This document shows, piece by piece, positions 19,593 through 22,759 of a stretch of DNA of 64,000 bases; position 1 is the first letter of the stretch; each line of letters opens with the position of its first letter. The notes under the pieces were generated by a model that did no database searches, had not been told where the DNA came from, and was given only the letters and a program-made list of their open reading frames with translations. Location of the stretch: NCBI GenBank assembly GCA_021732745.1, contig JAKFUK010000001.1, forward strand, positions 1,252,931-1,316,930, read 5' to 3'. The position numbers and the translations under genes are program-made. This DNA is from Nevskia sp. (GTDB taxonomy: Bacteria; Pseudomonadota; Gammaproteobacteria; Nevskiales; Nevskiaceae).

Positions 19593-19716
19593 CCCTTCTC
19601 GCCCCGGGAGAAGGGTTGGGATGAGAGACTTTCAGGCGGAGAACGCACTGATTGGGAAGTCCCTCACCCCCAACCGCCGGAGTCATGCTCCGGCCCCGGA
19701 AGGGAGAGGGGGGGGT
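19593..19716. repeat. GGGAGAAGGG/CCCTCACCCC repeat pair between leuS and lptE
   Basis: A left arm around CTTCTCGCCCCGGGAGAAGG (19594-19613) followed by TTGGGATGAGAG, and a right arm starting CCCTCACCCCCAACC (19661) and ending GGAAGGGAGAGG. The right part also carries the internal hairpin GCCGGAG-TCATG-CTCCGGC. The arms are of the same type as the 41-bp inverted repeats that bound the DUF559 insertion 1.5 kb away inside leuS, but only ~35 bp separate them, so this looks like an empty or decayed copy. Confidence 0.75.
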
Positions 19717-19723
19717 CACGGCA

Positions 19724-22700
19724 TCACACCACGAAATTCACCAGCTTGCCCGGCACCACCACCTGCTTCCTGATCGCCGCACCCGCAAGGAAGCGCTGCA
19801 CGGTCTCATCCGCAAGCGCGGCCGCGATGATCGCGTCCTGCGTGGACCCGGCCGGCACGCTGATCTGGCCACGCAGCTTGCCGTTGACCTGCACCACCAT
19901 CGCGATCGAATCCGAGACCCGGGCATCGGCCTCCGGCTCCGGCCATTCGGCGTCGATCACCGGTGTGGCGTTGCCCAAGGCCAGCCACAGTTCGTGGGCG
20001 GCATGCGGCACGATCGGCGACAGCACGCGGACCAGCGCCGACAGCGCTTCATTCAGCACCGCACGCCCCTGCGGGCTGCGGTCCTCGAACTTGGCCAGCG
20101 CGTTGACCAGCTCCATGCAGGCGGCCACCGCCGTGTTGTAGTTGTGGCGGCGGCCGAAGTCGTCGCTGATCTTGGCCAGCTGATCGTGCAGCTTGCGGCG
20201 GATGTCCTTCTGGGCCGAGGTCAGCGCAGCGCGGTCGAGCGGCTCCGTGGCGCCGAGGGCTGCGTGGTCGGCCACCAGGCGCCACGCCCGCTTCAGGAAG
20301 CGCAGCGCGCCGTCGATGCCGGCATCGCTCCATTCCAGCGTCTGCTCCGGGGGTGCGGTGAACATCATGAACAGACGCACGGCGTCGGCACCGTGCGAGT
20401 CGATGATCGCGGCCGGATCGACGCCATTGTTCTTGGACTTCGACATGGTGCCGAGGCCGACTGCGGTCACCGCTTCGCCGGTCGCCTTCAGCACATGGCT
20501 GCCGTCGGCGGTCTTGTCGACATCCTTCGGATTGATCCAGTCGCGGCCGCCGGCATCGGTGACGCGATAGAAGCCTTCGGCCAGCACCATGCCCTGAGTC
20601 AGCAAGCGCTTGAACGGCTCGGCGACCGCCGGCAGGCCGCAGTCGCGCATGAGTTTCGAGAAGAAGCGCGCGTACAGCAGATGCAGGATCGCGTGCTCGA
20701 TGCCGCCGATGTACTGGTCGACCGGCAGCCAGTAGGCGGCGCGCTCGTCGACCATGCCGGTCTGGCAGCCGGCGCTGGCGAAGCGGGCGTAATACCAGCT
20801 GGAATCGACGAAGGTGTCGAAGGTATCGGTCTCGCGCCGCGCCGGCTTGCCGCATTGCGGACAGGGCACGTTGACGAAGCTGTCGAGGCGCAGCAGCGGA
20901 TTGCCGCGACCATCCGGCACCAGATCTTCCGGCAGCCGCACCGGCAGCTGATCGGCCGGCACCGGCACCGCGTCGCAATCCGTGCAGTAGATGATCGGGA
21001 TCGGGCAGCCCCAGTAGCGCTGCCGCGACACGCCCCAGTCGCGCAAGCGGTAGTTCACCCGGCGACGGCCAGCGTTCTGCGCTTCGAGCTTCGCCGCAAT
21101 GCCGTCGAAGGCGGCCTTGAAGTCGAGGCCGCTGAACTCGGCGGAGTTGATGGTGATGCCCTTTTCCGTGAAAGCGGCCGCCGAAAGATCAGGCGCTTGT
21201 CTCCCCTCTCCCCCCGGGAGAGGGGCTGGGGGTGAGGGCGCTTCAGAGCTAGCCAAAGCCTCCCAAAGAAAACCAAGCACATCCTCCGTCCGCGAAAACA
21301 GCTCCGAATTCCACACCCGCAACGTCCGAATCCCCTGCGCCGCCAAGAACGCATCGCGCGCGGCATCTCGCCGTGCATGCGCGTCCTCGTTGTGCTGCCC
21401 GCCATCGAGCTCGATGGCGAGCTTCTGCTCGTGGCAGTAGAAATCGAGCACATACGGCTCGGCCGGATGCTGCCGTCGAAACTTGTGGCCGCCAAAGCGG
21501 CGATCGCGCAGCAGGCTCCAGAGATACTGTTCGGCGTCGGTCTGATCGGCGCGCAGTTCTCGGGCGAGTGAGCGCAGTGGGTCGGGAAGGCGCGGCTTTT
21601 CCCTGGCTGGGATGGCGGGCTCGGCGACGCCCTCACCCCCGGCCCCTCTCCCGGGGGGAGAGGGGAGACCAGCCGCCGCGATCACCGCCTTGATCGGCAA
21701 ACCGTACTTCACCGCAAACTCCCAATCCCGCTGGTCATGCCCGGGCACCGCCATCACCGCGCCGGAGCCGTAGCTCATCAGCACGAAGTTGGCGGCGTAG
21801 ACCGGAATGCATTCGCCGGTCAGCGGATGGATGACGTCGATGCCCAGCGCCACGCCGCGCTTCTCCATCGTTTCCATCGCCGCTTCGGTGACGTCGCCAC
21901 GGCTGGCTTCGTCGACGAAGGCGGCCACGGTCGCATCACGCGCGGCCGCTTCCAGCGCCAGCGGATGCTGGGCGGCGACACTCACGAAGGTCACGCCGTA
22001 TAGCGTGTCCGGGCGCGTGGTGAAGACAGTCAGCTTCTCGTCGCGGCCGGCGACCGTGAAGTCGATCTCCAGGCCCTCCGACCGCCCGATCCAGTTCTCC
22101 TGCATCCGCCGCACCGCTTCCGGCCAGTGTTCGAGCTGCTTGACCTCGGCCAGCAGTTCGTCGGCGTAGGCGGTGATCTTCAGGAACCACTGCGGAATCT
22201 CGCGCTGCTCGACGATCGCGCCACTGCGCCAGCCGCGGCCGTCGATCACCTGCTCGTTGGCCAGCACGGTCTGGTCGACCGGGTCCCAGTTGACGCGCGA
22301 GTTGCGGCGATAGATCAGGCCGCGCTTCAAGAGTTCGATGAAGAACCACTGCTGCCAGCGGTAGTACTCCGGCTCGCAGGTCGCGAGGCGGCGATCCCAG
22401 TCGTAGCCGATGCCAAGCTGCTTCAGCTGCCCGCACATGGTGTCGATGTTTGAGTAGGTCCACTCGGCCGGCGGCACCTTGTTCTTGATCGCGGCGTTCT
22501 CGGCCGGCAGGCCAAACGCATCGAAGCCGATCGGCTGCAACACGTTCTTGCCCTTCATCCGCTGGTAGCGGCTGATCACATCGCCGATCGTGTAGTTGCG
22601 CACGTGGCCCATGTGCAGCTTGCCCGACGGGTACGGGAACATCGACAGGCAATAGAACTTGTCCGCTCCCGGCTTCTCGACCGCCTTGAAGCTCTGCTGG

Positions 22701-22759
22701 GCTGCCCAGAACGCCTGGGCGCTGGACTCGACGTCGACGGGGCTGTAATCGGCTTTCAT
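19724..22759 (-). CDS. leuS: Leucyl-tRNA synthetase carrying an in-frame DUF559 domain insertion
   Basis: 1011 residues, against about 860 for E. coli LeuS. All hallmarks are present: PYPSGKLHMGHVRNY (HIGH box, 49-52), the CP1 editing domain with GHDQRDWEF, and MSKSK at 772-776, ending in the C-terminal anticodon-binding and tail regions. Between VIAAA and APDLSAAAFTEKG, residues ~364-520 are foreign to the family. They comprise a Pro/Gly-rich arm, a complete DUF559 (Vsr/PD-(D/E)XK-like nuclease) domain and a second Pro/Gly arm. Deleting them restores a normal ~855-residue LeuS. The insertion point is a surface segment late in CP1, roughly E. coli residues 366-372. No stop or frameshift is present. 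Confidence 0.95.
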   Translation of the reverse strand: MKADYSPVDVESSAQAFWAAQQSFKAVEKPGADKFYCLSMFPYPSGKLHMGHVRNYTIGDVISRYQRMKGKNVLQPIGFDAFGLPAENAAIKNKVPPAEWTYSNIDTMCGQLKQLGIGYDWDRRLATCEPEYYRWQQWFFIELLKRGLIYRRNSRVNWDPVDQTVLANEQVIDGRGWRSGAIVEQREIPQWFLKITAYADELLAEVKQLEHWPEAVRRMQENWIGRSEGLEIDFTVAGRDEKLTVFTTRPDTLYGVTFVSVAAQHPLALEAAARDATVAAFVDEASRGDVTEAAMETMEKRGVALGIDVIHPLTGECIPVYAANFVLMSYGSGAVMAVPGHDQRDWEFAVKYGLPIKAVIAAAGLPSPPGRGAGGEGVAEPAIPAREKPRLPDPLRSLARELRADQTDAEQYLWSLLRDRRFGGHKFRRQHPAEPYVLDFYCHEQKLAIELDGGQHNEDAHARRDAARDAFLAAQGIRTLRVWNSELFSRTEDVLGFLWEALASSEAPSPPAPLPGGEGRQAPDLSAAAFTEKGITINSAEFSGLDFKAAFDGIAAKLEAQNAGRRRVNYRLRDWGVSRQRYWGCPIPIIYCTDCDAVPVPADQLPVRLPEDLVPDGRGNPLLRLDSFVNVPCPQCGKPARRETDTFDTFVDSSWYYARFASAGCQTGMVDERAAYWLPVDQYIGGIEHAILHLLYARFFSKLMRDCGLPAVAEPFKRLLTQGMVLAEGFYRVTDAGGRDWINPKDVDKTADGSHVLKATGEAVTAVGLGTMSKSKNNGVDPAAIIDSHGADAVRLFMMFTAPPEQTLEWSDAGIDGALRFLKRAWRLVADHAALGATEPLDRAALTSAQKDIRRKLHDQLAKISDDFGRRHNYNTAVAACMELVNALAKFEDRSPQGRAVLNEALSALVRVLSPIVPHAAHELWLALGNATPVIDAEWPEPEADARVSDSIAMVVQVNGKLRGQISVPAGSTQDAIIAAALADETVQRFLAGAAIRKQVVVPGKLVNFVV
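21200..21668 (-). mobile_element. 469-bp DUF559-bearing element with 41-bp terminal inverted repeats, inserted in leuS
   Basis: Bounded by 21200-21240 and 21628-21668, inverted copies matching at 40 of 41 positions (outer end TCTCCCCTCTCC, inner end GGTGAGGGCG); each arm also contains the small palindrome CTCTCCC-CCC-GGGAGAG. Between them the minus strand encodes a full DUF559 domain: LRADQTDAEQYLWSLLRDR, then FRRQHPAEPYVLDFYCHEQK, LAIELDGGQH (acidic catalytic-type residues) and GIRTLRVWNSELFSRTEDVL. The arms are translated as PSPPGRGAGGEG and PSPPAPLPGGEGR. No target duplication is obvious. Net effect on LeuS is about 157 extra codons in frame. Confidence 0.85.

What the first reader, a model, noticed from the sequence alone, without database searches (positions are those of the whole stretch)
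21200..21668. A complete DUF559 nuclease-like domain inserted in frame into leucyl-tRNA synthetase, bounded by 41-bp inverted repeats
Seen: leuS is ~150 codons too long, and the excess (residues ~364-520) is a whole DUF559 domain whose edges coincide with inverted repeats that match at 40 of 41 positions. The repeats are themselves translated (PSPPGRGAGGEG, PSPPAPLPGGEGR), leaving LeuS open. Known: DUF559 belongs to the Vsr/PD-(D/E)XK nuclease group, and the CP1 editing domain is a large surface insertion able to tolerate length change. Inference: a small nuclease-bearing element entered an essential gene and survives because it is read through in frame, perhaps spreading like a homing element without intein-type splicing, since no splice-junction blocks are visible.
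Basis: partly seen in the sequence, partly recalled or inferred. Interest (0 to 1): 0.93.

Follow-up and report, generated by a model that had tools for sequence, protein, structure and literature searches.

The report
Nuclease module living inside essential enzymes
The only leucyl-tRNA synthetase gene of a bacterium that is likely a Nevskia carries, read through in frame between two palindromic repeats, a complete predicted DNA-cutting domain; similar repeat-bordered modules sit in frame in other housekeeping genes of unrelated bacteria, and they have likely spread by a homing-like copying process that would leave them permanently inside the host protein.

Summary
Confirmed, and larger than described. 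The genome's single leuS (likely Nevskia) holds a 471-nt (157-codon) insert, window 21199-21669: two palindromic arms around a full DUF559 domain, with no in-frame stop and no ATG; its predicted fold matches homing endonuclease I-Bth0305I and Vsr. Close kin have the empty site. The nearest LeuS (P0134, 99% identical elsewhere) lacks the insert, and 27 of its 37 mismatches adjoin the insert. P0001, from another lineage (89% elsewhere), has the insert and an identical 37/37-residue 3' flank; in the rest of the gene their kinship is rejected (AU p 2.6e-33). Insert plus flank is thus a recombined tract, as homing co-conversion would leave. It is not unique: 40 of the 80 kept DUF559 loci of named genomes lie deep in long frames (MetG, HrpA, MetH, ValS, RecG, TlyA, restriction-modification genes), and 100 of 120 listed long DUF559 proteins have repeat-like peptides on both sides. 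Repeats without the nuclease are translated inside ValS, PrmC, UvrA, Tgt and UreC of this genome. Palindromes inside reading frames were known; in the listings I saw, no paper describes an unspliced nuclease-bearing version. Cutting, mobility and direction of transfer are untested.

The parts
19724..22759 (-). leuS, 1011 aa, the only leucyl-tRNA synthetase over the family cut-off in the genome, holding the insert
   Evidence: ORF; Pfam; TIGR00396
21199..21669 (-). Inserted element, 471 nt = 157 codons, residues 364-520; no in-frame stop, no ATG, first GTG/TTG only at residue 437 inside the nuclease core
   Evidence: empty site in relatives
21628..21673 (-). 5' arm (gene sense): palindromic repeat translated as LPSPPGRGAGGEG; open in 5 of 6 frames
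   Evidence: 44/46 complementary to the other arm; frames
21195..21240 (-). 3' arm (gene sense): palindromic repeat translated as PSPPAPLPGGEGR; open in 5 of 6 frames
21643..21665 (.). 23-nt hairpin core of the 5' arm, 10-bp stem
21203..21225 (.). 23-nt hairpin core of the 3' arm, 10-bp stem
21257..21574 (-). DUF559 nuclease-like domain (PF04480), residues 396-501, catalytic-type residues all present
   Evidence: residues; model m52db93a0897e matches 3hrl, 3r3p, 1vsr
21113..21688 (-). Recombined tract, residues 358-549: insert plus adjoining LeuS residues in which the window differs from its 99%-identical nearest LeuS (P0134); the 3' part matches P0001 fully

Best explanation
The insert is a palindrome-bordered module coding for a complete predicted Vsr-like (DUF559) nuclease, without a start or stop of its own, that is read in frame inside the cell's only leuS and has likely spread by a homing-like process. 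Shown: the module, its arms, the open frame, the empty sites, the recombined tract around it, and similar in-frame modules in many genes of several phyla. Inferred: (1) the nuclease, made as part of the host protein, cuts DNA at or near matching element-free alleles or repeat sites; (2) repair copies the module together with neighbouring host DNA (co-conversion), so it passes between lineages at the same site and now and then enters a new gene; (3) only insertions that keep the frame and fall in tolerant linkers survive in essential genes, helped by arms that are open in five of six frames; (4) nothing is spliced out, so the host enzyme keeps a tethered nuclease domain; (5) the short repeats elsewhere in the genome are relatives without the nuclease.
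For: Empty site in close relatives at DNA level. Recombined tract: window LeuS and P0134 are 99% identical over 722 columns, yet 27 of their 37 mismatches adjoin the insert; window and P0001 share 37/37 residues 3' of the insert while 89% identical elsewhere, and one clade for them in the rest of the gene is rejected, AU p 2.6e-33. DUF559 stands at the same LeuS site in two more, distant LeuS clusters, P0193 and P0224. 40 of 80 kept named-genome loci lie inside long frames; hosts. Borders: 48 of 78 loci have flanking inverted repeats at score 18 or more, against 1 of 66 far-flank and 18% of mispaired controls; 100 of 120 listed long proteins have repeat-like peptides on both sides, 116 on the 5' and 103 on the 3' side, against 128 of 2400 control pieces per side. 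dN/dS of the domain 0.04-0.26 in the 6 of 11 pairs with unsaturated dS. ATG within 20 codons before to 5 after the core start: 6 of 42 long-frame against 27 of 36 free-standing copies (16 against 32 if 40 codons are allowed). Fold: I-Bth0305I and Vsr. Repeat-rich genomes have DUF559 more often, 36/53 against 42/316.
Against: No target-site duplication seen; the insert replaces about three codons. The DUF559 domains of window and P0001 differ by 12.5%, so the exchange is not recent, and its direction is open: P0134 may have lost the insert by conversion to an allele it shares with G011. P0001 is known here as protein only, and this is one pair of lineages. DUF559 copies cluster by host gene (42 label changes against 156 in shuffles), which vertical descent would also give; well-supported branches force only one origin for MetG, MetH and HrpA. 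Host and insert distances correlate in several genes. The genome has 7 Y1_Tnp (RAYT-type) matches, which may move the repeats. 17 of 53 repeat-rich genomes lack a strong DUF559, and 42 of 78 DUF559 genomes have fewer than 5 repeats. In the 30 best class loci only 14 had arms at score 18 or more. Catalytic-type residues are kept in 174-175 of 175 host-borne copies, but the contig scan used ELDGGQ and KFRRQH peptides as bait, so for those loci this is partly built in. Activity and mobility are untested.
Confidence: 0.58

Rival explanations
1. Hitch-hiker on the repeats: the palindromic repeats are moved by a RAYT-type (Y1_Tnp) nuclease, and DUF559 is cargo caught between two repeats, without a role in movement.
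For: 7 Y1_Tnp matches in this genome, matches in 15 of 18 genomes of the genus; Y1_Tnp in 44 of 53 repeat-rich genomes against 197 of 316 others, Fisher p 0.003. 10 of 23 repeat loci of this genome show two cores 80-89 nt apart, as in REPIN pairs (recalled).
Against: The link of the repeats with DUF559 is stronger (odds ratio 13.8 against 3.0); of the 9 repeat-rich genomes without Y1_Tnp, 5 have DUF559 and 4 have neither, while 13 have Y1_Tnp without DUF559. The nuclease is under purifying selection in host-borne copies. By eye the arms do not end in the GTAG or CGTC heads of the repeats in PMC3733652 (passages).
Confidence: 0.2
2. Domain fusion kept for the host: DUF559 was fused to LeuS and other enzymes because it gives the host a use (repair, defence), and was then inherited vertically with some loss.
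For: DUF559 labels cluster by host gene; purifying selection; many hosts are restriction-modification genes, where a nuclease makes sense.
Against: Patchy presence with empty sites in close kin (LeuS; MetH empty in 39 of 41 genomes, this one included); related modules in unrelated enzymes; repeat borders; other genes of this genome carry the repeats alone; incongruent tract in LeuS.
Confidence: 0.12
3. Plain recombination: the module is inert baggage that moved with ordinary homologous exchange of leuS segments between Nevskia strains, with no part for its nuclease.
For: LeuS of this genus has at least three linker alleles at the site (window type, empty type, P0134/G011 type), so change at this place occurs without DUF559 too.
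Against: Does not explain related modules in unrelated genes, nor purifying selection on the domain.
Confidence: 0.15

Closest known systems
In-frame palindromic repeats in reading frames (Rickettsia palindromic elements; GTAG/CGTC REPs in ORFs, PMC3733652, passages read)
   Same: Palindromic repeat inserted in frame and translated in housekeeping genes such as uvrA; the repeats alone in ValS, PrmC, UvrA, Tgt and UreC of this genome look of that kind.
   Different: Those are described as short repeats without a gene; here two arms enclose a complete nuclease domain.
EDxHD homing endonuclease I-Bth0305I (PDB 3r3p; named in PMC9403480, passages read)
   Same: Nuclease fold; recombined flank tract as after homing.
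   Different: I-Bth0305I is listed as a mobile intron protein; here no intron or intein was found and the domain is predicted to stay in the host protein.
Inteins with homing endonuclease (recalled)
   Same: In-frame insert with a nuclease in essential genes.
   Different: No splicing domain found; flanked by palindromic repeats.
REP/RAYT 'REPtrons' (PMC8266576, abstract and outline seen)
   Same: Palindromic repeats together with a nuclease gene and many repeat-only copies in the genome.
   Different: DUF559 has a Vsr-like fold and is not a HuH enzyme; it is translated in frame inside other genes.
Vsr-like DUF559 proteins such as Caulobacter VsrA (PMC12907096, passages read)
   Same: Same domain family; Vsr fold match.
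   Different: Described as a free-standing gene with a proposed mismatch-repair role.

Membership tests
DUF559 (PF04480) family | Profile match over the curated cut-off | tested here: met
   112.6 bits, cut-off 20.6
DUF559 (PF04480) family | Catalytic-type residues present (their role is recalled) | tested here: met
   E, D, E, D, H all present in the window copy
Homing endonuclease (EDxHD type) | Fold of I-Bth0305I/Vsr | tested here: met
   Foldseek E 1.7e-4 to 3r3p, 1.5e-2 to 1vsr; sequence profile E 0.0035 to 3r3p
Homing endonuclease (EDxHD type) | Cuts the element-free allele | not testable with these tools
   needs an enzyme assay
Homing endonuclease (EDxHD type) | Co-conversion of flanks on transfer | tested here: inconclusive
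   tract 358-549 fits; one pair of lineages, protein level for P0001, direction open
Intein | Splicing (Hint-type) domain | tested here: not met
   Pfam at E 1e-3 shows LeuS domains, DUF559 and a related nuclease model only
Insertion sequence / MITE | Transposase gene or target-site duplication | tested here: not met
   no transposase family in the insert; no duplication seen at the LeuS site
REP/RAYT REPtron | Y1_Tnp (HuH) gene between the repeats | tested here: not met
   DUF559, not Y1_Tnp, lies between the arms; Y1_Tnp genes exist elsewhere in the genome
In-frame palindromic element (RPE/REP in ORF) | Palindromic repeat translated in frame | tested here: met
   arms translated in LeuS; repeat alone in five other genes
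In-frame palindromic element (RPE/REP in ORF) | No gene cargo | tested here: not met
   complete DUF559 domain inside

The most novel reading that the evidence does not exclude
A new class of mobile element: a nuclease gene with no start, stop or splicing of its own, framed by palindromes that stay open in five of six reading frames, which homes from lineage to lineage and now and then from gene to gene by living permanently as a domain of essential proteins, with repeat-only derivatives spreading behind it through the genome.
Probability: 0.43. Interest if true: 0.95.

Novelty: new variant of a known kind. Interest (0 to 1): 0.87.

Why it matters
It would show how a selfish nuclease can hide in genes that cannot be lost, without any splicing device; it would explain many of the 'fused' DUF559 proteins in databases (655 long ones at E up to 1e-8); and it would give a nuclease candidate for the spread of a common family of palindromic repeats. 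The natural insertion places in LeuS, MetG, MetH, RecG, HrpA, ValS and BioA could also serve protein engineering.

Tried and rejected
Assembly artefact: unlikely, because independent record P0001 carries the same insert and other genomes show the same architecture. Second leuS: none over the cut-off. Old insertion in all relatives: rejected by empty sites. Target-site duplication: looked for, none seen. Full LeuS model: core about 90 pLDDT, insert about 30-70, so nothing is claimed from the placing of the domain; the domain was modelled again alone with a deeper alignment. Alignment A3 misplaced domain fragments and was not used. DUF559 against host identity by gene (at most 14 rows a gene) gave no clear homing signal: the two correlate in MetG (0.60), HrpA (0.91), BioA (0.76) and PglX (0.84). 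The reversed-pattern control was useless because the pattern is nearly symmetric; one search used no mismatches. DNA of P0001 was not found: a search of 18 genomes of the genus showed no other DUF559 in LeuS. Phages: no match in 50,697 records; plasmids: 34 of 72,556 records, all under 60% identity, at E up to 1e-10. Weak toxin-subunit rows (E 0.11 or more) are chance and were not followed. Literature: searches (14 papers, all listed; passages read of 2; none; 4; 501 papers, 15 listed; 13, 12 listed; 14, 12 listed; 4,729, 12 listed; 53, 10 listed; 10): no title or abstract start in these listings describes DUF559 between palindromic repeats or in frame in housekeeping genes. Most listed papers were not opened, only open-licence papers are held, and PMC3239194 was not held.

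Full report
What is there. The window's leuS (19724-22759, minus strand, 1011 aa) contains a 471-nt, 157-codon insert at 21199-21669 (residues 364-520). Pfam reads the LeuS editing domain to residue 362, DUF559 at 396-501, then LeuS again. The borders are inverted arms of 46 nt with 44 matches (61 nt at 87% when extended). Each arm has a 23-nt core that folds as a 10-bp hairpin; the whole arms fold only slightly better than shuffles. The pattern is far above chance in the window: 3 hits against 0.01 expected, up to 3 mismatches. Inside the insert there is no in-frame stop and no ATG; the first GTG or TTG comes at residue 437, within the nuclease core, so the domain depends on LeuS translation. 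The genome has one leuS over the cut-off and two DUF559 domains.

Empty sites. One search found LeuS in 61 genomes (this one included); I read 33 loci through the site, of which 31 were readable, three of them second copies of a locus already read. The close kin G015, G005, G008, G014, G002 and G010 show an uninterrupted sequence of the type IAAA-ADGP-APDLS. The DNA alignment shows that the insert replaces about three codons and leaves no visible target-site duplication. At the same place other LeuS genes have in-frame inserts that by eye look repeat-like, without DUF559: G016, G025, G030 and G022, and P0139, P0198, P0200 and P0132 (120 LeuS proteins, 33 of which my pattern did not parse). Of these 120 proteins three carry DUF559: P0001, P0193 and P0224; the last two have other arms. 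A single DUF559 clade for the four LeuS copies is not rejected (p-AU 0.783), on few columns.

A recombined tract. P0134, the nearest LeuS, is 99% identical to the window over 722 columns outside the region, but has no DUF559 and a different linker allele, shared with G011; 27 of its 37 mismatches to the window fall at residues 358-367 and 522-549, next to the insert as aligned. P0001, from another lineage (96-97% identical to P0122 and G014, which are empty), has the insert and 37 of 37 residues of the window's 3' flank (524-560), although it is 89% identical to the window elsewhere. Other members of the window's and P0001's group have 76-89% in that flank, except G011 and P0134 (57 and 51%); outgroups have 59-70%. 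A tree of the rest of the gene (25 rows; G007 and G010 of the earlier set of 15 were left out as partial, 12 database proteins added) rejects window + P0001 as a clade, AU p 2.6e-33. So insert and flank share a history that the rest of the gene does not. Homing co-conversion gives this; ordinary recombination could too. The DUF559 domains of the two differ by 12.5%, so this is not a recent event, and P0134 may have lost the insert rather than the window gained it.

Not one gene but many. A search of long proteins (0.55-1.75 times the LeuS length) for residues 364-524 gave 655 with E up to 1e-8, 120 listed. By precomputed domains and source names the listed hosts include LeuS, MetG, MetH, ValS-like, RecG, HrpA, BioA, aconitase-like, and HsdS, HsdM, HsdR and other methylase genes. 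All 20 that I fetched to read show repeat-like peptides on both sides by eye; by a simple peptide test on the 120, 116 have them on the 5' side, 103 on the 3' side and 100 on both, against 128 of 2400 control pieces of the same proteins. Record titles name Proteobacteria, Planctomycetes, Chloroflexi, Verrucomicrobia, Nitrospirae, Kapabacteria, Actinomycetes and a Dethiobacter; the copies inside long frames come from Proteobacteria, Chloroflexi, Planctomycetota, Kapabacteria and one untitled bacterium. 40 of 80 lie in frames that run at least 120 aa upstream and 100 aa downstream, four of them reaching a contig end. All 44 frames of 400 aa or more were scanned with NCBIfam: best hits are MetG 9, HrpA 5, Mur-ligase/cyanophycin-synthetase-like 4, MetH 2, ValS 2, RecG 1, TlyA 1, HsdM 7, HsdR-type 2, PglX-like 2, CcrM-like 2 (weak), BREX-type 1 (weak), and 6 with no named host; the ligase-like, HsdM, PglX, CcrM, TlyA, ValS and some other hits are under the family cut-off. 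For restriction-modification hosts a useful fusion is harder to exclude. For MetH, 39 of 41 relatives, this genome included, have the empty site (70 nt or less between the two halves), one (G020) has the insert and one (G001) was not joined on a contig; G031 and G025, outside that set, have the insert too.

Borders and repeats. Of 78 loci that could be scored (2 of 80 lay too close to a contig end), 48 have flanking inverted repeats at score 18 or more, against 1 of 66 far-flank pairs and 18% of mispaired flanks; in the 30 class loci that the search gave as loci it is 14 of 30 against 0 of 30 and 7%. Since the arms are themselves palindromes, direct pairing scores as well (14 of 30), so this shows paired palindromes, not orientation. 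The window's arms are open in five of six frames each, and in other hosts similar peptides appear in different frames (for example PSPPAPLPxGEG, LTPALSQRERG, PHPNPLPEGEG). In this genome the pattern occurs 43 times (20 forward, 23 reverse); 10 of 23 repeat loci show two cores 80-89 nt apart. Without DUF559 the repeat is translated in frame inside ValS, PrmC, UvrA, Tgt and UreC (10 frames scanned, 5 gave these families, 5 gave none); empty sites for these were not looked up. Across 369 genomes of the class, 78 have a strong DUF559 (E up to 1e-15, my cut after seeing the list; 112 at E up to 1e-3); 36 of the 53 genomes with at least 5 repeats are among them, against 42 of the other 316 (Fisher 6e-16). 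The same test for RAYT-type Y1_Tnp gives 44 of 53 against 197 of 316 (p 0.003). Species are not independent, so these p values are too small.

Nuclease. Profile and model agree: 3hrl (endonuclease-like), the I-Bth0305I catalytic domain (3r3p, sequence E 0.0035, Foldseek 1.7e-4) and Vsr (1vsr, 0.015); mean pLDDT 89. The five catalytic-type positions are kept in 174-175 of 175 copies labelled as host-borne and 47-48 of 48 others. Two cautions: which of them do the catalysis is recalled from the Vsr/EDxHD literature, and the contig scan used the peptides A[IV]ELDGGQ and KFRR[QE]H as bait, which builds part of this in for its 80 loci (not for the 120 proteins, found by other words). dN/dS of the domain is 0.04-0.26 in the 6 of 11 pairs with unsaturated dS. 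An ATG stands within 20 codons before to 5 after the core start in 6 of 42 long-frame copies and 27 of 36 free-standing ones (16 and 32 with 40 codons), so long-frame copies mostly lack a near start of their own.

Tree. With 221 domains, host-gene labels need 42 changes against 156 in shuffles. The labels MetG, MetH and HrpA need 4, 3 and 2 changes on the tree, but well-supported branches force only one each. The LeuS copies stand next to the MetH copies of related Nevskiaceae (SH-aLRT 94, not starred). The alignment is short and 96 of 209 inner branches are open. Clustering by host gene fits both homing to the same site and vertical descent; related modules in different genes of one family fit movement.

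How it likely works, and what is not shown. My reading: the host-borne nuclease cuts empty alleles or repeat sites, repair copies the module and flanks, and only frame-keeping insertions in linkers survive. Cutting, copying, target choice and the role of the arms are inferred. The main rival is that RAYT-type enzymes move the repeats and DUF559 is cargo. Known precedents cover the parts (palindromes in reading frames, PMC3733652; REP/RAYT, PMC8266576; EDxHD homing enzymes, PMC9403480), but in the listings named under Tried and rejected I saw none that joins them.

Noticed in passing
window 19593-19705: Another, diverged pair of the same repeat family lies between the end of leuS and the next gene.
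   Followed up: partly
LeuS P0134 and L029/L075 (G011): A third, unrelated linker allele (IQYAHLK..NTNFYLYVPT) at the same LeuS site, in P0134 in a protein otherwise 99% identical to the window's LeuS.
   Followed up: partly
protein P0002 (1243 aa): A ValS-like protein with two DUF559 modules and several repeat-like peptides in one gene.
   Followed up: no
protein P0018 (857 aa): Many repeat-like peptides in a row after a DUF559 domain.
   Followed up: no
L158 against L128, L141, L145, L164: HrpA copies of one DUF559 clade sit at two different places of the gene.
   Followed up: no
L141/L128, L145/L164, L147/L167: Synonymous divergence of DUF559 is higher than that of the host gene around it, hinting at separate acquisition; weaker codon bias could also cause it.
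   Followed up: no
L066, L067, L068, L072: A free-standing DUF559 with similar upstream sequence in four Nevskiaceae genomes, its reading frame running through the 5' repeat peptide.
   Followed up: partly
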